Positions 701 through 21,554 of a stretch of DNA of 24,659 nt are shown here, one piece after another (the first letter of the stretch is position 1; every line of letters starts with the position of its first letter). The notes beneath the pieces were generated by a model, which was given only the letters and a program-made list of their open reading frames with translations, had not been told where the DNA came from and did no database searches. The DNA comes from Vittaforma corneae ATCC 50505 (taxonomy: Eukaryota > Microsporidia > Nosematidae), in contig NW_006889849.1 of assembly GCF_000231115.1 (NCBI RefSeq), forward strand, positions 19,929-44,587, given 5' to 3'. A program made the position numbers and the translations under genes.

Positions 701-2260
701 ATGGAATACACACTGCCAAGTTGCGACAGTGGCACATGCCATTCGACATTCTTCCAGAACCCAGCTCAGATGATAATCCTCGGAGAAGTCCAGAACTGCT
801 CTTCGGAAAAAGTGGCAATCAGGACGCAGGAAGGAAGCTTTGAGCTGTCTGGAGGCGAAGTCGACCATGGCCAGCTTGGCCAAAACGACAGAGTGGTTGT
901 CAGTGTCCCGCACATTTCCCACTTTTCTCAGCTTTCAAAAATAGAATACACAAAAGGTGTCAAAATTGCCAGAAATCCCTTCAAGTACATCTCCGACCTA
1001 AGAAAAGACCAGTACTGTGACGTGGTTGCTGTGTGCACAGACTACAAGCCCCTGGTTAAGACCAAGGGAACCGACCATCTGTTTTCTCTGTGCTTGCTTG
1101 ACCAGACTGGCAGTGTGGAGCTCAAGGTTTTCATCGATGAGAAGAGCTTCCGAGAAATGGCCGAGGATGCCAGCGAGCCGTTTAGAAAGGGGGACGTCCT
1201 GCTAGTCAGGAATATAAAGCAGGGATTTAGCGAGCGCGTTGCTGTTGTCTCAAAGCCTTGTCTAATCTACAAGGTGACAGGCTACGAGGCGGCAGATTCT
1301 GCCGAAAACAGCGGGCAGGAGCTGGGCAGCTTTGTGGAACATGCAATTGCACGGTTCTTGGCAAGCTGCTATAGAAGCACGTCGTTTTCTGCGTCGTCAA
1401 AAATGAAGAGCATCCGGGATCTCCGAGACAGAAGCTTCTTCAACATCCTTGGCAAGGTTATTCACTGCGAATACGACCAGGTGCCGTCGGTAAGCATAAC
1501 AGACTTTACTGCCAGTCCGATGGTGGAGCGGGGATACGGGGCATTTCCCAACAATATGGTGCTCACAATCAAGCTTTTTGGCCAGCACTCGTCTCTTTTG
1601 AAGAGGATTGCTGTTGGGAAGCACTGTCTATTTGTGAACATCAGGATGCATTCGTTCGACACTGTCCTGGAGGCATACATGCACGACAACCTGTCCGGCG
1701 ATGTTGTTCCTGTGGACAGCGAAAATGAACTAGGCGAAATCAAAGCAAGAGAGCAGGAGTACTATTCGAGTCTGCACAAAAGCAGCCAAACACAGGACAC
1801 AGACAACAGCGACGCGGATGCCGATCGGAAACAGCCGAATGCAGACATGTCTGGAGACAGCTGCTTGAGTGCCTCTGCAGCAGATGGCACAGCGCCAGTA
1901 GAGCCGCACAGGCCCCTCGACATCCCAATAGTTCCAATCCATCACATTGGCGAGCCCGGAATCTTCCTGTGCTCCTGCCTCATAGGCGATATTTCCTACT
2001 CACCGCAAAACCTGCATTCAATAGTGACTGTTGTGGACTCTGGCCGCGAGTACCAAACCAGAGCAAAGAAAACCCTGACCCGGAAAATTGCCGAATCGGA
2101 CAAAATAGCCGCAGGCTCAGAGTTCAAGTGCTTGGTCTTGAAGACCGCAGCAGACGTGCTGTTCTTGGTGGACGTCTTTGTGGATGAGCAGGAGTATCGA
2201 GGCTTTCTTGAATTTTACCACAGATCGTCAGAAAAGCACAGCATTAGAACAGATCATTAA
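701..2260 (+). CDS. POT1: POT1-like telomere end-binding protein
   Basis: Predicted single-stranded telomeric DNA-binding protein of 519 residues, acting at chromosome ends. The best evidence is a telomere-binding OB fold at about residues 95-190 with the segment DVVAVCTDYKPLVKTKGTD (KTKGTD at 120-125), which closely follows the POT1 signature of a [KR]T[KR]GTD loop followed by a strand ending in LLDQT. A second OB-like domain lies at about 240-330 (SFFNILGKVIHCEYDQVPSV onward), the order seen in POT1. A Ser/Asp/Gln-rich linker (about 350-410) separates this from a C-terminal domain. A small extra domain precedes the first OB fold. ATG 701 is the first in-frame ATG; ATG 770 (GILGEVQ-like segment starts just after it) is possible. 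It converges with the YEATS gene. The family call is good; telomere specificity is inferred. Confidence 0.75.
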   Translation: MEYTLPSCDSGTCHSTFFQNPAQMIILGEVQNCSSEKVAIRTQEGSFELSGGEVDHGQLGQNDRVVVSVPHISHFSQLSKIEYTKGVKIARNPFKYISDLRKDQYCDVVAVCTDYKPLVKTKGTDHLFSLCLLDQTGSVELKVFIDEKSFREMAEDASEPFRKGDVLLVRNIKQGFSERVAVVSKPCLIYKVTGYEAADSAENSGQELGSFVEHAIARFLASCYRSTSFSASSKMKSIRDLRDRSFFNILGKVIHCEYDQVPSVSITDFTASPMVERGYGAFPNNMVLTIKLFGQHSSLLKRIAVGKHCLFVNIRMHSFDTVLEAYMHDNLSGDVVPVDSENELGEIKAREQEYYSSLHKSSQTQDTDNSDADADRKQPNADMSGDSCLSASAADGTAPVEPHRPLDIPIVPIHHIGEPGIFLCSCLIGDISYSPQNLHSIVTVVDSGREYQTRAKKTLTRKIAESDKIAAGSEFKCLVLKTAADVLFLVDVFVDEQEYRGFLEFYHRSSEKHSIRTDH

Positions 2261-2923: not shown

Positions 2924-3778
2924 TTAATCATCGACTCTAGGCAGACAAGATTGTTTGATCTTCTTGATTATCTCATCAAACACCACTTCAAACTCGTCCT
3001 TGCTTTCGCTCAGCGGAGAGGCAAACATCCTCCTGGCCAAAACATTGAGCCCTGCACGCAGGTGCTTGATCTTGGCGAACACAGCATCAACGACCGCCTC
3101 ATGCTCCATGCCAGACGAATAGATGACCCGTAGATTCTTCATGAACAGGTTCATTACCTTGTCTGGGTTTGGAAGAGCCGGTGTGGGCACAAAGGCTGGG
3201 TTGATCAGCGGAAGGAAGATCCCACCATCTTCGTAGAATTTGAAGAGGAAGTAGTCGTTAATCAGCCATGCATGGTCGCGGCCATCGCTGTCGGGTTTTG
3301 GACCAAGTAACGAAGCATGCTTCTGGAAAAATGAATACGAAGCTCTGAGGAGACGGGAATGTTTTGCCCTGAATTCTCCGGCTATCTCGTCTCTGTCGCA
3401 GTACTCGTGAAACTTTACAAAGAAGCTTCGAATCATCTCTCGGATATTGTCTACCTCAGGATTGTCCTCGGCCCCAACGATGTCGCTAAGAAGCCTTCCG
3501 TACGGCGTCGTAGTGAAAAGATCTGCCGCTACACTGGCAAGAGCTTTGCTATTGAAAACTAGAAACTTGGTCAGATCCTTGAGACTGTCAACAACGTCCT
3601 CATCGCTTAAGAGATGGAAAAGGACAACATCTGCTTTTGAGCACTTATATTTTGTACAGCACGGTGTGTGCTTCGGTTGTTCATCCACAGCACTGATGCT
3701 CTGGACGTGTCTCTGCTCTGTGTCTCCAGTCGTTCCAACACTGAGTGCCAGTAGTAAAAGCTTAAATACTTCTACCAT
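2924..3778 (-). CDS. Putative secreted protein, unknown function
   Basis: A 284-residue protein that starts MVEVFKLLLLALSVGTTGDT, a typical short signal peptide with probable cleavage after about residue 16-18. No second membrane segment is visible, so it may be secreted or retained in the endomembrane lumen. A Cys-rich patch (CCTKYKC) lies near residues 39-45; the rest looks helical with many Phe and Leu. I do not recognise a family. The first in-frame ATG is 3778, and its context is convincing: CCCC at 3782-3785 and a TTTTATG-type box upstream. It is divergent from PCNA, with 142 bases between starts. In microsporidia such orphan secreted proteins are often lineage-specific and host-exposed, which here is only inference. 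Confidence 0.65.
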   Translation of the reverse strand: MVEVFKLLLLALSVGTTGDTEQRHVQSISAVDEQPKHTPCCTKYKCSKADVVLFHLLSDEDVVDSLKDLTKFLVFNSKALASVAADLFTTTPYGRLLSDIVGAEDNPEVDNIREMIRSFFVKFHEYCDRDEIAGEFRAKHSRLLRASYSFFQKHASLLGPKPDSDGRDHAWLINDYFLFKFYEDGGIFLPLINPAFVPTPALPNPDKVMNLFMKNLRVIYSSGMEHEAVVDAVFAKIKHLRAGLNVLARRMFASPLSESKDEFEVVFDEIIKKIKQSCLPRVDD

Positions 3779-3920
3779 TTTGGGGTAAAAGAAAACAAAG
3801 CATAAAAGTCCCAAGAAACAGCGTGCTACCTTGGGTCTGCAGAGGAGCTGGCCAAAGCTATTTCGTGCCCAGATGTCGTCCCAGAGCCCTCGACAAATTT
3901 TTTATCCAACATCTTCCCCA

Positions 3921-4710
3921 ATGTTCGAGGTTGAACTCAGAAAATTCAGACTCAGAAAAGAACATCGCTTACGAGCGACTCAACGCATTTAGAAAGGTGA
4001 TCGAGAGTCTCGCAGACATCGTGGATAAGATGGAAATCAAGTGCTCCGACTCGGGACTGGACATCCAGGTGATGGACTCGATGCATGTTGCCCTGGCAGA
4101 CGTGCACTTCTCAAGAGAAACATTCACGAGCTACAGATGCGACAGGGATGTGCAGCTGGGCATCCCAATCAAGCACTTCCTCACCGTCCTTAGGGGAATA
4201 GCCCTTGAGGAGAAGAGTCTTCTGAGATTTTCATGCGAGGACGAGCCCCAGGCCCTCAAAATCGAGCACATCCTCCCAAACTCCCAGTTCGAGTTTGACA
4301 TCACTCTGTACCAAATAGGCACAGAGTCCTACTCAGTGCCGGAGCTCGAGTTCGACACAAAGGTCAGAATGCCCTCGGAGCAGTTCAGAAACATCTCGCG
4401 GCTTATTGGGTCGTTTGGAGAGTATATCAACTTTGAGTGCGAAGACAAAAGGCTGGTTGTCAAGCAGAATGGAGACCTGATAAAGAACAACATGAGTCTG
4501 AAGCCAAACGAGGAGACCGTGTTTATCGACGCGACAGCCCCTGTCAACTTAGAGATAGCCATGAAGTATGTTAATATTGTCAATAAGGTGTCCACCCTCA
4601 GCAGCGAGGTAAGAGTCAACCTTGGAAACTCGACGCCGGTGTTTTTTGAAGTCGACATCGGCAGCATTGGATACATCAAGTTCTATATTGCGCCAAAAGC
4701 ACAAAATTAA
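3921..4710 (+). CDS. POL30: PCNA sliding clamp, with a 5' frame break (candidate 31-base intron)
   Basis: The DNA polymerase processivity clamp, a homotrimer encircling DNA at replication forks. Diagnostic segments are the first helix AFRKVIESLADIVDK, IQVMDSMHVALADVHF, YRCDRDVQLGI (human YRCDRNLAMGV) and the ending GYIKFYIAPK (human GHLKYYLAPK). The body frame has no ATG before codon MEIKC at 4030, which is already inside the conserved fold. The only good start is ATG 3921 (MFEVEL, matching the family MFEARL), with CCCC at 3916-3919 and an AAATTTTTTAT box 20-30 bases upstream, but it is one frame away and would hit TAG at 3990. Removing a GT...AG segment at 3930-3960 restores the frame, giving 252 residues against about 258-261 in the family. 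A frameshift or one-base sequence error is the alternative. Confidence 0.9.
3930..3960 (+). other. Candidate 31-base intron in PCNA
   Basis: This segment begins GTTGAA and ends AAAAG, has length 3n+1, and its removal joins MFE to NIAYERLNAF in the frame of the conserved PCNA body. The 5' site does not match the usual GTAAGT, which weakens the call. The spliced N-terminus is only about one residue longer than human PCNA before the first helix, whereas a simple one-base skip would leave about ten extra residues. Confidence 0.35.
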
Positions 4711-4775: not shown

Positions 4776-5795
4776 CTAGTCAGACAGGACCTCGTACTCG
4801 TCCAGAATGCCCCACACCCTCGGGTAGAGATCCTTCTCCATTATCACCCTTTTGGTCTTCGTGATGATGCCTCTCTCCATCTCGGCCAGCTGGCTCGATG
4901 CAACCAGCGGCTGGGCTATTGCCACTGCTTCGCCCTTGGCTGTCATCAGCACAACAGTCGAGTTTGTGTCAAAGTCCCTGTCGTACCTCAAGACCCCAGG
5001 CACCGACAGCTGTCCCCCGTAGCATATGGCATTCACGGCCGAGTCTCTGATCATTATTCTCGGGTACGACACCAGCAGTGTTTCAAGAGGCCTCACCACC
5101 TTTCTGAGATACCTCTCCTCTCCGGTCTTTTTGTACATGTAGTAGGCATCCTGGACATCGTGGAGCGTCACACACTCGTCCTCTGTTGTCAGCCCACTCT
5201 GTGTCCGTCTGAGATCAGCCATTGCTGCGCCGCATCCGATGTACAGCCCAATGTGTGTGCACAGTGTTCTGATGTAGGACCCCGCCTCGCACCTGACCTC
5301 GAAAAGCGCCATCTTGGGCGTAAACTCGATAATATTAATCGCATAGATCCATCTCAGCCTTAGATCCCGCTTGACTGCACACATCACAGGCGGCCTCTGA
5401 AACAGATGCCCAGTCAGCTTCCTGCATGCATTGCTGAACTTCTCGGCCGTGGTCTCCGTGTCAAATTCAATGCAGCAAACGTATGTCTTTCCTGCGTTCT
5501 GCTGGCTTTTGGTCAGCCTCGTTGCTCTGTTCAAGCAGATGCTCAACACGCCAGTCACCTTCGGATCCAGCGTCCCGCTGTGGCCTGTCTTCTCGCAGTC
5601 GAGGATGCCCTTTACCCACGTCACAACCTCATGCGAGGATGGATTTGCAGGCTTGTCGACCGTGACCACCCCGTACTTCAGATACTCGCCAATTGGCCTA
5701 TTCACCGGCATTGTTCCGTGGCCGCTTGGGTTGTGATCCCTTGACTTTACAACCATCTGGTCTTGGTTTTTCAGCAGGAGCAGGCTTTCCTCCAT
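4776..5795 (-). CDS. CBF5: Cbf5/dyskerin, H/ACA snoRNP pseudouridine synthase
   Basis: Catalytic subunit of H/ACA snoRNPs, which isomerise uridine in rRNA in the nucleolus and help pre-rRNA processing. The TruB-family core is nearly textbook: DKPANPSSHEVVTWVK, then KTGHSGTLDPKVTGVL with the catalytic Asp at residue 77, RATRLTKSQQNAGKTYV, LFQRPPVMCAVKR and CEAGSYIRTLCTH. A PUA domain follows (about 235-325: DSAVNAICYGGQL, VPGVLRY, IMEKDLYPRVWG). At 339 residues it lacks the Lys-rich tail of yeast and human proteins. ATG 5795 is preferred because a 14-base element identical to that of the eIF3b gene lies six bases upstream; ATG 5837 would add 14 residues. It converges with PCNA and lies 44 bases downstream of the Rrb1-like gene on the same strand. 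Confidence 0.95.
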   Translation of the reverse strand: MEESLLLLKNQDQMVVKSRDHNPSGHGTMPVNRPIGEYLKYGVVTVDKPANPSSHEVVTWVKGILDCEKTGHSGTLDPKVTGVLSICLNRATRLTKSQQNAGKTYVCCIEFDTETTAEKFSNACRKLTGHLFQRPPVMCAVKRDLRLRWIYAINIIEFTPKMALFEVRCEAGSYIRTLCTHIGLYIGCGAAMADLRRTQSGLTTEDECVTLHDVQDAYYMYKKTGEERYLRKVVRPLETLLVSYPRIMIRDSAVNAICYGGQLSVPGVLRYDRDFDTNSTVVLMTAKGEAVAIAQPLVASSQLAEMERGIITKTKRVIMEKDLYPRVWGILDEYEVLSD

Positions 5796-5801
5796 CCAGG
5801 A

Positions 5802-5815
5802 CTGCAAAAATTTGC
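5802..5815 (-). promoter_or_regulatory. AAATTT-type promoter element of CBF5
   Basis: The coding strand reads GCAAATTTTTGCAG, ending six bases before the chosen ATG. Exactly the same 14 bases lie three bases before the eIF3b start. AAATTT-like signals are reported upstream of ribosomal protein genes in Encephalitozoon cuniculi, so a link to ribosome production is plausible. Confidence 0.55.
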
Positions 5816-5839
5816 TCAAAAAATCTGTGTGCAGCATGC

Positions 5840-6874
5840 TTATTCAGACAGCTCAGCAAACGAAACCGGCTCAAACACACACAGCCCGTCCTCACTGGTC
5901 ACGGCTATCGAGCTTCCATAAAATGCACAGTCCTTATAGCATCTTTGGCCCTGATGCACAAAGAGAAGGCTTCGGGGAACATCCAGGCCCTGCTCGTCCT
6001 CCAGAGTAATATCCCAGAGACAGACCTGCTCGTCAGATCCTGTCACAAACACCTCGTCGTCCCTCCACCTGACAAACGAAATGGGCGTGCAATGCCACTC
6101 AAAGACTTCCCTGCTGCCAGTTTCAAGATTTACGAGATGCACTCTGCCATTATCGTCGCCAAACACTACATGTCCGTTTCTGGCATCCAAAGAATTAACC
6201 TCCGAGTCGTTTTCGATGGTTGAGAGCAGCTCTCCCTTCAGGTCAAATATTCGGACCCTGTGGTCTAGCGACCCCGTGGCTATTATGCTCCGAGCATCAT
6301 CGAAGCCCACACACTCAATCGGAGACTCGCCAGACGATATGCAGCCCAGTAGCTCGAGACTGTGGCTGTAGACCTCGACGTTGCCATTTTCACACCCGAC
6401 GATTACATAGCTGTCTGAAACATGCAGCCCAAACCTGAAGAACCCCTTTACCTCTGCAACAACATTGCATTCCAGATCAAACTTTGTGAGAAAGCTGTCC
6501 GAAAGCGCAAAGATCGCATTGCAGATCCGGACTTTGTTGAATGCTCTGTCGGCTGGATGTGTTCTAAATTCAAGCACGCTAAGCCCACTGCCGTCTGCAG
6601 TCCTCTCCAGTTCCACTTCAACTATTTGGTTGTCATGCTCTTCTGTGCGATCTCGGTCTGGAAAGGTTCCCAGGACGATCCTGGACTTGCAAATATCCAG
6701 ACTCATGGACGGCCACTCCAAACTGATGTACTCGAGTAGAGAATAGGCCTCCTCATCCACCTCAAGCTCGCCCTCCTCCGTGCCTGTTGGCCTGTATGTC
6801 TCGTAGTCTTCCGAGCTTAGGTCTATTTCTTCAATGGGCTCTTCTCTTGTCTTTTGCACGCTCCTCTTGGCCAT
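5840..6874 (-). CDS. RRB1: Rrb1/GRWD1-like WD-repeat ribosome assembly chaperone
   Basis: Predicted 344-residue WD40 propeller of the Rrb1/GRWD1 group, whose members escort ribosomal protein L3 (uL3) to nucleolar pre-60S particles. Family features visible: an acidic N-terminus (residues 11-42, rich in Glu and Asp), then LLEYISLEWPSMSLDI (47-61), matching the conserved WPxLSFDI block. WD-type repeats follow, including ATGSLDHRVRIFDL (199-212) and VTGSDEQVCLWDI (277-289). The near-diagnostic LLFVHQGQ is at 303-310, with a final blade after it. It is shorter than yeast Rrb1 (about 510). ATG 6874 is the first in-frame ATG. The 3' end is only 44 bases before the CBF5 start, and the two share the ribosome-biogenesis theme. 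Confidence 0.8.
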   Translation of the reverse strand: MAKRSVQKTREEPIEEIDLSSEDYETYRPTGTEEGELEVDEEAYSLLEYISLEWPSMSLDICKSRIVLGTFPDRDRTEEHDNQIVEVELERTADGSGLSVLEFRTHPADRAFNKVRICNAIFALSDSFLTKFDLECNVVAEVKGFFRFGLHVSDSYVIVGCENGNVEVYSHSLELLGCISSGESPIECVGFDDARSIIATGSLDHRVRIFDLKGELLSTIENDSEVNSLDARNGHVVFGDDNGRVHLVNLETGSREVFEWHCTPISFVRWRDDEVFVTGSDEQVCLWDITLEDEQGLDVPRSLLFVHQGQRCYKDCAFYGSSIAVTSEDGLCVFEPVSFAELSE

Positions 6875-17251: not shown

Positions 17252-18080
17252 TCAAACCTTGATCAGTTCCTTAAAATGCTCAAAGATATAGCACACAAAA
17301 TTCGACAGATGCTTTATGCCCATCCAGTTCGGCTCATTGAGGTGTGGCTTGATCAGATTTGGCATCATGATAACAGCCAGTCCTGGCAGACTTAGCTTTT
17401 TGCTTGAGTCCAACTTTTTTAACTTACTCGTAGTCTTTGCGCACACATAAACACAGTTCTCCAGTATTTTCCGGTTTGTGTACGGGAGGCTCCAAATAAA
17501 TGCCTTGGTACACGCCATCTTGTCATCCTCGTCTTGGATCTGCTCTATTTTAATCGCTATGTCGATCATCTGCCGGGGAATCACTGGGTCCTCAAATGTG
17601 CTGAAAAGAAACTTGTAAACTGCCGCGATGTCAATAACATCAAAGGCTGCCCTGAGCCTGGTCATCCCCTGCTGCTTTGAAAGCTCCGAGGCCGATATCC
17701 TCCTGAGCAGCTCCATCAGGTCTATTATTTTCTGTCTCGTGCTGTTCACCCTGAAAATCTGAGTTTTCTCCAGAGTGTCCCCAAGCAGCAGCTCGCTGGC
17801 AAGATGCAGGATCCCTGGTATTAGCAAATGGTGCTCCGAAAACCTGAAGTGCGATGGCCGCATGTCGTACTCGCTTACCCGAATCGTGCTGAGCCTTCTG
17901 AACACCCATCCAAGAAGCGACTGCTTCAGAGTCAAAACCTCCATCCAGGTAATGTACTTTCTGAGGATTTTCCTGTGGCTGTCGATAAATTCTGCTTTTT
18001 ATTCTTTCCTGTTCGTCTTCAGACACATCGTTTATTGTTACGTATCTTTTGTGCAGCTTGGGTGCCTTTTTGCGATTCAT
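17252..18080 (-). CDS. RhoGAP-domain protein, with a 5' frame break (candidate 34-base intron)
   Basis: A GTPase-activating protein for Rho-family small G proteins, acting in actin and polarity control. In the body frame, the RhoGAP domain shows IPGILHLASELLL, then KTQIFRVNSTRQKI with the arginine-finger Arg, DIAAVYKFLFSTFEDPVIP, LPYTNRKILENCVYV and LSLPGLAVIMMPNLIKP, in the canonical order. The upstream frame starting at ATG 18080 (MNRKKAPKLHKRYVTINDV) looks coding for about 41 codons and has an A+T-rich promoter box at 18093-18111, but is one frame off. Removing the GT...AG segment 17924-17957 joins the two into 264 residues. Alternatively ATG 17944 starts a 230-residue protein in the body frame and the upstream codons are 5' leader. 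The domain call is strong; the 5' structure is open. Confidence 0.8.
17924..17957 (-). other. Candidate 34-base intron in the RhoGAP gene
   Basis: On the minus strand this begins GTACAT and ends GACTCTGAAG, length 3n+1. Splicing joins ...QENPQK to QSLLGWVF in phase 0. The ATG at 17944, which would be the alternative start, lies inside it. The 3' part resembles that of the PCNA candidate (GACTCAGAAAAG). Confidence 0.35.
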
Positions 18081-19131: not shown

Positions 19132-20304
19132 ATGAGGTGGATACTCGAAACTCTCAAGACTCTTGCCAGCGAGGGCGTAATGCTGGGAAAGAAAAGTAAA
19201 GACAAGTATTTGGCCGACAAGATACTTAGGAACAACAACTTGGAGAAGTCTCCCGGTGGCCTGGAAACATACTCGGTGCGGGTGGACGCCAGCAAAGAAC
19301 GCTGCTCGCATCTCAACAACCTCAAATGCAAGCTGTCTGAGGCAGCAGAAACACAGAAAATCGGAATCCGCGACTTCGTCCTTGAGAGCAGCTATGTAAA
19401 GAACATGCTTGGATATGAGAAGCGGTTTGTGCAGTTTCTTTCGCCCTTCCCCGTTGATGAGAAGAACGAGGCAGTATACTGCTGCGACGGGTGCTACTAC
19501 AAGTACAAGCTGGAGACCATAATAGACATGCTGGACTATGCATCCTTGGACATTGAGGCCTCGCTATTCGGTGCCATTGGGTCTGGCAGATTCACTCTGA
19601 TAGGTCTCAAGAAGAAACTCACGAAAAAGGAGATTAATGAAAAATCGAAGGAAGAGGAGGTCGAATACAAGAAGATGGTAGCGCTGTCTATGCAGCACAA
19701 TGGACAGGTGTATTTAATAGCAAGGAGCGGCAGGCGAATCTGTCTTCTGTGCATTGCAGAGCATGTCTTTGAGGGAGGGGTGAACTCAAGACATGTGTAT
19801 CTGATCAGAGATGCCGTCACCAGTGCTGAAAAGTTTGCCAGCATCACCGAGAATGACGCATACAAAATCAGCTATGTTGAGATTGATAGGATATATAGAT
19901 TTGACAGCGAGACTGGCCAGGCAGTCAACATTGTTGCGGGCAACGCTAGTAAGTTCAGGAAGGAGTACGAAGCAGTATACCCTGACGACACCATGTTTGC
20001 CGATATAAGGGCCGAGGTCAAGAGAGTTGCCAGGAGCTTCAAGCCTATGCTCAGTGCAGAGGCTATCGAAGAAATTGACAGGGCACTGGGCAGGAATGCA
20101 AAATCTGATGCCAAGACTGGCAGCAGCGGGGCAGCGCAGAAGAACTCTGGCGATCAAAGGCCTGCAGAGGACCCAGCAGCTGGACGCCCGGGGCTATTCA
20201 AGATAATTGCAGTGTGTATTGTTGCCACTGTAATCCTGTACTACACGATAAGACTGGTGATGCCCAAGAGTCCTCCGCAGATGCGCAGAGTTCCCATACT
20301 ATAG
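19132..20304 (+). CDS. Tail-anchored protein of a tandem paralogue family, copy 1
   Basis: A 390-residue protein of no family I recognise, clearly related to the next gene. Shared features in order: an N-terminal block MRWILETLKTLASEGVMLGKK (copy 2: VKWIAKCLKDLAALGVL), then DKYLADKIL; a CCDGCYYKYKLETIIDMLDYASLDIE block at about 117-142 with a CxxC pair; FTLIGLKKK; a YVEIDRIYRFD block; and a conserved stretch before a low-complexity Ser/Gly/Ala linker (about 322-352). One transmembrane helix is at about 356-376 with a short basic tail. The lack of a signal peptide suggests a cytosolic body anchored at the C-terminus. ATG 19132 has CCCC at 19123-19126. The CxxC may bind metal or form a disulfide. 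Confidence 0.7.
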   Translation: MRWILETLKTLASEGVMLGKKSKDKYLADKILRNNNLEKSPGGLETYSVRVDASKERCSHLNNLKCKLSEAAETQKIGIRDFVLESSYVKNMLGYEKRFVQFLSPFPVDEKNEAVYCCDGCYYKYKLETIIDMLDYASLDIEASLFGAIGSGRFTLIGLKKKLTKKEINEKSKEEEVEYKKMVALSMQHNGQVYLIARSGRRICLLCIAEHVFEGGVNSRHVYLIRDAVTSAEKFASITENDAYKISYVEIDRIYRFDSETGQAVNIVAGNASKFRKEYEAVYPDDTMFADIRAEVKRVARSFKPMLSAEAIEEIDRALGRNAKSDAKTGSSGAAQKNSGDQRPAEDPAAGRPGLFKIIAVCIVATVILYYTIRLVMPKSPPQMRRVPIL

Positions 20305-20417
20305 CATAATAAATAAAACTCGTTTTGTTAGCCGATTGTTTGGGTTAAACTGCGGTCTCTGTCTTCTGGCAGTTCGTTTTGCCACATCCGTTTATTTCAT
20401 CTGCCGTCACCCCTTTG

Positions 20418-21554
20418 ATGGCAGACGTAAAGTGGATTGCCAAGTGCTTAAAAGACTTGGCTGCATTGGGTGTTCTGAATACAGAAAAGCAGTCCTCGGA
20501 CGAGTACTTGAAGAACAAGCTCGTTGAAAAGAATGCCAATGTTTCTGACAACGTTAGATCGTTTAATGTCTTTCTCTATCCAAGCGCTACAAACTGTGAC
20601 AAAAAGTCAAAGGATCTCAGAAACTGCGATCTTTTTACATTTGCAAACGAAAACAAGTACATCTTCAGGGAGTTCCAATACACACCAGCCACAAAAAACC
20701 AGCCCTCCTCCCAGCAGATCCTAACGGTCAATACCGTGCAGGACTTTAAGGAGGGGCACTATTCCTGCAGCTTCTGCTACTACAAGCACCGTGTGCTGTC
20801 TCTTCTGGAAAGACTGCAGTATGCCCCATTAGAGATAGAGTTGCCGATGGCAGGCGCCAACGGAACCCAGACATTCTTCTTTGTGGGGCTGGAGATGAAG
20901 AAAAGCAAGGACGATCCAACCAAGTACAAGGTGTTCATGGGCTTTAAGTATGACTATAAGGACCCCAAGGACAGCAGAGCTGCAGTTCGCAAGCGATATG
21001 TATTGGTCTCGGCCAGCCTAGACAGTAAGGTCACGTATGTCGAGCTCATGCCCCGGGAAAATAGCGAGTACGATGTTGATATGAAGCATGTTATAACGTC
21101 GCTCCCCGTTGACGATCTCGAAGTGGAGCTGTTTGATTTGAACTCCATATACTACACCGATGAAAACATGAATGAAATAAACCTTGGCGCCGAGCGCTTT
21201 GACTCCTTTGTCCAGTCATTTGCAGTATCAGTCGACGTTGAGGGTCTATTCGAGACAGTAAGGCCTGTGGTCAGCAAGAAGCTTGATGAATGTGCCAAGC
21301 AGGCCAAGAAGCTTGAGGAGCAGGTTGGCATGATCATCTCCCAACAGACAGTAGAAAAGAAGGCGGCAGAGATTGGGATAGGAGACAAGGGTAAGGAAAA
21401 TAAGGAGGAGCAAGGCCAGAGCCTGTTCTTCTTCAGCAACAAAAAGGTCTTCGCATCTATTGCAGTAGCAACAATCGTCATACTTTTCTTCTACTATGCC
21501 TTGGGCAGGAGCAGCGAACAGGCCGACAGGAAGGAGAGGGTGGCCCTGCTTTAG
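20418..21554 (+). CDS. Tail-anchored protein of a tandem paralogue family, copy 2
   Basis: A 378-residue paralogue of the preceding gene, 113 bases downstream on the same strand. It keeps the N-terminal VKWIAKCLKDLAALGVL, the SCSFCYYKHRVLSLLERLQYAPLEIE block with CxxC at 117 and 120 (within one residue of copy 1), FFFVGLEMKK, YVELMPRE, and SIYYTDEN...INLGAERFDSF. The C-terminal third differs: a Lys/Glu-rich probable coiled coil (about 285-334) replaces the Ser/Gly linker before the membrane helix at about 345-362 and a short charged tail. ATG 20418 is the first in-frame ATG, with CCCC at 20410-20413. The low similarity despite identical layout indicates an old duplication or fast divergence. 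It converges with MCM6. Confidence 0.7.
   Translation: MADVKWIAKCLKDLAALGVLNTEKQSSDEYLKNKLVEKNANVSDNVRSFNVFLYPSATNCDKKSKDLRNCDLFTFANENKYIFREFQYTPATKNQPSSQQILTVNTVQDFKEGHYSCSFCYYKHRVLSLLERLQYAPLEIELPMAGANGTQTFFFVGLEMKKSKDDPTKYKVFMGFKYDYKDPKDSRAAVRKRYVLVSASLDSKVTYVELMPRENSEYDVDMKHVITSLPVDDLEVELFDLNSIYYTDENMNEINLGAERFDSFVQSFAVSVDVEGLFETVRPVVSKKLDECAKQAKKLEEQVGMIISQQTVEKKAAEIGIGDKGKENKEEQGQSLFFFSNKKVFASIAVATIVILFFYYALGRSSEQADRKERVALL

What the first reader, a model, noticed from the sequence alone, without database searches (positions are those of the whole stretch)
3921..4030. PCNA start codon and body lie in different frames
The conserved PCNA frame is open upstream of 4030 and includes the first helix, but contains no ATG there. 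The only promoter-supported ATG (3921, MFEVEL, CCCC and an AAATTTTTTAT box upstream) is one frame away and runs into TAG at 3990. PCNA is essential, so this should be an intron, a programmed +1 shift or a base error. Removing the GT...AG segment 3930-3960 gives a family-length N-terminus.
Basis: partly seen in the sequence, partly recalled or inferred. Interest (0 to 1): 0.75.

Follow-up and report, generated by a model that had tools for sequence, protein, structure and literature searches.

The report
PCNA gene with one surplus base
An essential replication gene of a microsporidian parasite looks split across two reading frames, most likely because the assembled sequence carries one surplus base rather than because the cell splices or shifts frame.

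Summary
ATG 3921 reads MFEVEL... and stops at TAG 3990. The PCNA body frame (to 4707) is one frame away, with its first ATG at 4030. The intron reading fails. In 27 of 27 related proteins residues 1-6 fit the ATG-3921 frame, and the closest, P0002 (87-90% identical), runs MFEVELKNSDSEKNVAYERLNAF collinearly with the window, without a gap. So 3930-3960 is coding sequence. Homology places a net one-base surplus within 3936-3948.

PCNA is not alone. A RhoGAP-like gene in the same window has the same kind of break against its one relative. Twenty 10-kb stretches of the same assembly hold 12 frame switches, in 8 of the 20 stretches, 8 surplus and 4 missing. Three genes there are split inside one Pfam family: DNA polymerase delta, an RNA polymerase largest subunit and a pyridine-nucleotide oxidoreductase.

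The simplest reading is a base error in the assembly, at a short A run. A real indel or a programmed +1 shift is not excluded, because no reads could be seen.

The parts
3895..3919 (+). AAATTT-like (3895-3900) and CCCC (3916-3919) signals directly upstream of ATG 3921
   Evidence: signal type described in PMC2803860 (passages)
3921..3938 (+). likely true start and codons 1-6 (MFEVEL) of PCNA, in the frame of ATG 3921
   Evidence: residues 1-6 fit this frame and not the body frame in 27 of 27 relatives
3936..3948 (+). interval within which the frame changes; net one surplus base relative to relatives; overlaps a run of four A
   Evidence: sequence
3946..4710 (+). PCNA body frame with stop codon
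   Evidence: Pfam PCNA_N and PCNA_C; relatives
3930..3960 (+). GT...AG segment proposed as an intron; read here as coding sequence
   Evidence: aligned without insertion to the close relatives
17252..18080 (-). second gene of the window with the same kind of break: RhoGAP-like protein, residues 1-28 in the frame of ATG 18080, the rest in another frame, net one surplus base
   Evidence: one relative, P0032, runs through in one frame; Pfam RhoGAP

Best explanation
This is an ordinary intronless microsporidian PCNA gene that starts at ATG 3921 and ends at 4710. The assembled sequence carries one surplus base within 3936-3948 (about codons 6-8, at a short A run), which throws the start and the body into different frames. 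The likeliest cause is a sequencing or assembly error, one of several frame breaks in housekeeping genes of this assembly. Shown: the two frames, the collinearity with relatives, the interval and sign of the shift, and further breaks elsewhere. Inferred: that the surplus base is absent from the organism's DNA.
For: Residues 1-6 fit the ATG-3921 frame in 27 of 27 relatives (BLOSUM62 19 to 29, against -6 to -1 in the body frame). Residues 9-23 score 13 or more in the body frame in 18 of 27 and higher there than in the ATG frame in 26 of 27; P0002 scores 74 against -9. P0002 aligns without a gap from its first residue. AAATTT- and CCC-like signals sit at ATG 3921 (PMC2803860, passages). A second 5' break of the same sign lies in the RhoGAP-like gene of the same window (one relative). 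12 frame switches lie in 8 of 20 fetched 10-kb stretches (193.6 kb of ACGT), 8 surplus and 4 missing. Pieces in different frames match successive parts of one profile: PF00136 2-185 and 187-453 (L037); PF04998 1-87, 97-138 and 171-260 (L041; the middle piece, 23.9 bits, is under the cut-off of 28.5); PF07992 2-109 and 125-291 (L038). Precedent: in Nosema ceranae (454 reads) 58 cases of adjacent ORFs could be joined by assuming a single-base frameshift error (PMC2685015, passages).
Against: No reads or second assembly of the same organism could be seen, and the sequencing technology is unknown. The A run is only four bases long. 9 of 27 relatives score under 13 for residues 9-23 in the ungapped body-frame comparison, and P0023 scores worse there than in the ATG frame (-11 against -4); most of these have longer N-termini. 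The frame model was trained on the same sequence, keeps only segments over 60 nt and has no measured false-positive rate. Five of the 12 switches (L033, L036, L037:3042, L038, L043) have an in-frame ATG within 30 nt and could be neighbouring genes, although Pfam supports a break in L037:3042, L038 and L033. L032 and L036 gave no family, one side of L043 and the piece L041:1588-1809 gave none, and L037:7158 was not scanned. The stretches come from contigs of lower G+C than the window's, so their error rate may not carry over. ATG 18080 of the RhoGAP-like gene has no CCC within 20 nt. In the window only PCNA and the RhoGAP-like gene were compared with relatives; the frame model shows no other break there.
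Confidence: 0.85

Rival explanations
1. A real one-base insertion is fixed or polymorphic in this organism. PCNA is then made from a non-ATG codon in the body frame (such as TTG 3931, where the predicted protein P0001 begins) or from ATG 4030, or this copy is dying.
For: The body frame is open upstream to at least 3775. P0001 was predicted from TTG 3931 (read), and CCCC lies within 20 nt of that codon too. The frame is otherwise intact to 4707.
Against: PCNA has one match in the assembly and is essential in eukaryotes (established knowledge). ATG 4030 would drop the first strand and helix (established knowledge of the fold) and lacks upstream signals. Residues 1-6 of the relatives are still readable in the ATG frame. 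Other genes expected to be essential are broken in the same assembly.
Confidence: 0.08
2. A programmed +1 frameshift on the mRNA: ribosomes start at ATG 3921 and skip one base near codons 6-8.
For: Net shift is +1 in PCNA and in the RhoGAP-like gene, and 8 of 12 other switches have the same sign. A four-A run lies at the site.
Against: Not conserved: the 26 relatives aligned are each predicted in one frame. No stop or rare codon at the site: CTC 17.0, AGA 20.5 and AAA 17.4 per 1000 of 7424 window codons. A tRNA-Arg(TCT) gene exists (30 of 42 tRNA loci scanned). The stop is about 45 nt downstream. The nonamer CTCAGAAAA at the site recurs at 3951 in the same gene, where the relatives continue without a shift. 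4 of 12 switches elsewhere have the opposite sign. One search for microsporidia with 'programmed frameshift' listed 2 papers, neither on this by title (listing only).
Confidence: 0.05
3. A short spliceosomal intron 3930-3960 (GT...AG, 31 nt).
For: GT and AG are at the ends and removal brings start and body into one frame (sequence). The resulting N-terminus would be close in length to yeast PCNA. Some microsporidia have few, short introns (PMC10245619, passages), in ribosomal-protein genes with a motif at the 5' end (PMC4435813, passages).
Against: The close relatives encode this segment. Removal leaves 15 residues before the conserved V where P0002 has 25. U6, U2 and two Prp8 domains were not found in the assembly; these are weak negatives, the more so since Prp8 is kept in most species without splicing. 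Splicing was lost or reduced in the ancestor of Ent. bieneusi and V. corneae (PMC4435813).
Confidence: 0.01

Closest known systems
PCNA of related microsporidia (P0002 unnamed; P0007 Glugoides intestinalis; P0019 Pancytospora philotis)
   Same: Same domains and an MFE start; 262, 262 and 264 residues
   Different: Here start and body lie in different frames
Single-base frameshift errors in a draft microsporidian assembly (Nosema ceranae, 58 cases, PMC2685015, passages)
   Same: Neighbouring open frames that match parts of one protein, parted by one base
   Different: Technology of this assembly unknown; breaks counted only in a sample
Short introns of some microsporidia (PMC4435813 and PMC10245619, passages)
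   Same: GT...AG ends close to the start codon (GT...AG as the general rule is recalled)
   Different: No insertion relative to the close relatives; no spliceosome parts found

Membership tests
PCNA (eukaryotic sliding clamp) | PCNA_N and PCNA_C domains | tested here: met
   PF00705 E 4.9e-20, PF02747 E 1.2e-22; PDB PCNA chains
PCNA (eukaryotic sliding clamp) | N-terminal Met in frame with the body | tested here: not met
   Met 3921 is one frame away; the aligned relatives have it in frame. I take this as a fault of the sequence, not as a different family.
spliceosomal intron | segment absent from homologous proteins | tested here: not met
   3930-3960 aligns as coding to the close relatives; absent only from distant PCNAs such as yeast
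spliceosomal intron | spliceosome in the organism | tested here: inconclusive
   no U6, U2 or Prp8 domain found, but no control genome rang either; PCNA_N and tRNA searches did work on this assembly
programmed +1 frameshift | site conserved among relatives | tested here: not met
   26 aligned relatives are each predicted in one frame
programmed +1 frameshift | stop or slowly read codon at the shift site | tested here: not met
   common codons, stop about 45 nt downstream
programmed +1 frameshift | shifted protein product | not testable with these tools
   needs proteomics or a reporter
base error in assembly | similar breaks in other housekeeping genes of the same assembly | tested here: met
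base error in assembly | reads disagree with the assembled base | not testable with these tools
   no reads held

The most novel reading that the evidence does not exclude
The surplus bases are real, and this parasite reads many essential genes (PCNA, its partner polymerase delta, an RNA polymerase subunit, a RhoGAP) through frame breaks near short homopolymers by ribosomal or transcriptional slippage genome-wide.
Probability: 0.04. Interest if true: 0.85.

Novelty: not a real feature. Interest (0 to 1): 0.1.

Why it matters
As an error it matters only for annotation: the protein predicted for this gene (P0001) starts at the wrong place, and broken frames in this assembly should not be taken as introns, pseudogenes or recoding without reads. 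If the bases proved real, tolerance of many frame breaks in essential genes would be remarkable.

Tried and rejected
Intron 3930-3960: rejected by the close relatives. Upstream in-frame ATG: none in the body frame from 3775 to 4029. Second PCNA copy: one match only. Programmed shift at a recurrent motif: CTCAGAAAA occurs 9 times in the 224.7 kb of window plus 20 stretches, one of them 15 nt downstream in the same gene. Whether the window's contig belongs to another organism than the other contigs (G+C 0.49 against 0.30-0.44) was looked at and left open: PCNA and the gene at 4776-5837 (Cbf5-like to my eye, not scanned) have one match each in the assembly, which argues against a second complete genome, but the gap is unexplained. 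U2, U6 and Prp8 searches are weak negatives because no control genome rang. P0027 (140 residues, a fragment) was left out of the alignment and tree but was used; P0001 is the window's own protein and is not counted as a relative.

Full report
What is there. The window is bases 19929-44587 of contig C16 (77,468 bases) of an unnamed 2.9-Mb, 35-contig assembly, microsporidian by its nearest PCNA relatives. ATG 3921 opens a frame of 23 codons (MFEVELRKFRL...) that ends at TAG 3990. The frame of 3922 is open from at least 3775 to 4707 and has no ATG before 4030. It carries PCNA_N and PCNA_C and matches PCNA chains of the PDB.

Which ATG is the start. In E. [quoted passage not shown] an AAATTT-like signal stands before it in ribosomal-protein genes of five microsporidia and in highly expressed E. 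cuniculi genes (PMC2803860, passages read). ATG 3921 has both; ATG 4030 has neither; TTG 3931, ten bases on, shares the same signals. CCC lies within 20 nt of 11 of 19 other starts in the window, against 14.6% of random 20-mers; AAATTT lies within 40 nt of 2 of those 19. A three-periodic coding model puts the 5' end of body-frame coding at about 3926. ATG 3921 is therefore the likely start.

Relatives settle the anatomy. A search of 5.8 billion proteins gave 28 matches. One is the window's own prediction, P0001 (259 residues), which begins at TTG 3931 in the body frame; the other 27 are relatives. In 27 of 27, residues 1-6 fit the ATG-3921 frame (BLOSUM62 19 to 29) and not the body frame (-6 to -1). 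Residues 9-23, compared without gaps, score 13 or more in the body frame in 18 of 27, and higher there than in the ATG frame in 26 of 27. The 9 low ones (P0018, P0020-P0026, P0028) mostly have longer N-termini; P0023 is the exception that scores worse in the body frame, -11 against -4. For the closest, P0002, the scores are 74 and -9. P0002 is 262 residues and aligns to the body frame with no gap from its first residue; 26 relatives were aligned, P0027 being a fragment. In P0003 and P0008 the predicted protein begins further upstream, and P0015 has MLE for MFE. The change of frame lies within 3936-3948, the net difference is one surplus base, and the interval overlaps a run of four A.

Intron. 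Splicing out 3930-3960 would leave 15 residues before the conserved V of RKV. No U6, U2 or Prp8 domain was found in the assembly; these are weak negatives since no control genome rang, while the PCNA_N and tRNA searches did work on it. Desjardins et al. 2015 place a loss or reduction of canonical splicing in the ancestor of Ent. bieneusi and V. corneae, and note that Prp8 is kept in most species without splicing (PMC4435813, passages). In the PCNA tree the window groups with P0002 (99/95) and lies in a set of 24 rows that holds Glugoides and Pancytospora and not Ordospora; the root is at the midpoint. Glugoides is Enterocytozoonida (PMC12449221, passages); that Ent. bieneusi and V. corneae belong there too is recalled, and neither is in my tree.

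Is PCNA special? It seems not. In the same window a RhoGAP-like gene (17252-18080, minus strand) shows the same thing: its one relative, P0032 (275 residues, 75%), runs in one frame, while the window has residues 1-28 in the frame of ATG 18080 and the rest in another, again with one surplus base beside an A run (Pfam RhoGAP). Twenty stretches of 10 kb from 15 other contigs (193.6 kb of ACGT) show 12 same-strand frame switches between segments over 60 nt, in 8 of the 20 stretches; a thirteenth, in the window at 5843, is a pair of neighbouring genes. Of the 12, 8 are surplus and 4 missing. Twenty pieces from 11 of the 12 switches were scanned against Pfam. Three genes are split inside one family: DNA polymerase delta in L037 (PF00136), an RNA polymerase largest subunit in L041 (PF04998 in three pieces, the middle one under the cut-off) and a pyridine-nucleotide oxidoreductase in L038 (PF07992). 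Domain order supports breaks in L033 (helicase then DSHCT), L048 (two weak condensin-like matches), L041:3197 and the first L037 switch. L043 has a shortened ERCC4 domain on one side only. L032, L036 and the piece L041:1588-1809 gave no family, and L037:7158 was not scanned. Five switches have an in-frame ATG within 30 nt and could, on that ground alone, be neighbouring genes.

Reading. Frame breaks in several genes expected to be essential, of both signs, near various short runs or none, are what base errors in a draft assembly give. Cornman et al. 2009 report 58 such pairs in Nosema ceranae that could be joined by assuming a single-base error (PMC2685015, passages). A programmed +1 shift would be expected to have a conserved site and usually a stop or slow codon (general knowledge). 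The site is not conserved, its codons are common, a tRNA for AGA exists, the stop is about 45 nt away, and the same nonamer recurs 15 nt downstream without a shift in the relatives. Against my reading: no reads were seen, the run is short, the frame model has no measured false-positive rate, and the other contigs differ from C16 in G+C (0.30-0.44 against 0.49).

Verdict. Observation confirmed, intron rejected, base error most likely (0.85, unchanged after checking). Interest is low unless reads show the base is real.

Noticed in passing
whole window (contig C16 of G000): G+C is 0.49 here against 0.30-0.44 in the 20 stretches and the tRNA loci of other contigs. PCNA and the gene at 4776-5837 have one match each in the assembly, so a second full genome is not evident; the gap is unexplained.
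   Followed up: partly
17252-18080, minus strand: RhoGAP-like gene with start and body in different frames, one surplus base beside an A run.
   Followed up: yes
L037:1235-4131, L041:945-5131, L038:85-1039: DNA polymerase delta, an RNA polymerase largest subunit and a pyridine-nucleotide oxidoreductase of the same assembly are each split over two or more frames.
   Followed up: partly
19132-20304 and 20379-21554, plus strand: Two neighbouring paralogous proteins (30% over 185 aligned positions) without a Pfam match at E 0.001 and, by eye, with a hydrophobic stretch near the C-terminus.
   Followed up: partly
701-2260, plus strand: Protein with weak matches to POT1-type single-strand telomere-binding domains, possibly a telomere protein.
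   Followed up: no
G000: C16, C23, C22, C4, C19, C6, C21, C2: Eight places in the assembly match the window's MCM helicase subunit, two more than the usual MCM2-7 set (set recalled); the window's own has a weak MCM6_C match just under the cut-off.
   Followed up: no
3961-3990 and relatives P0002-P0028: These microsporidian PCNAs carry about ten more residues before the first helix than yeast PCNA; the stretch varies in length among them.
   Followed up: no
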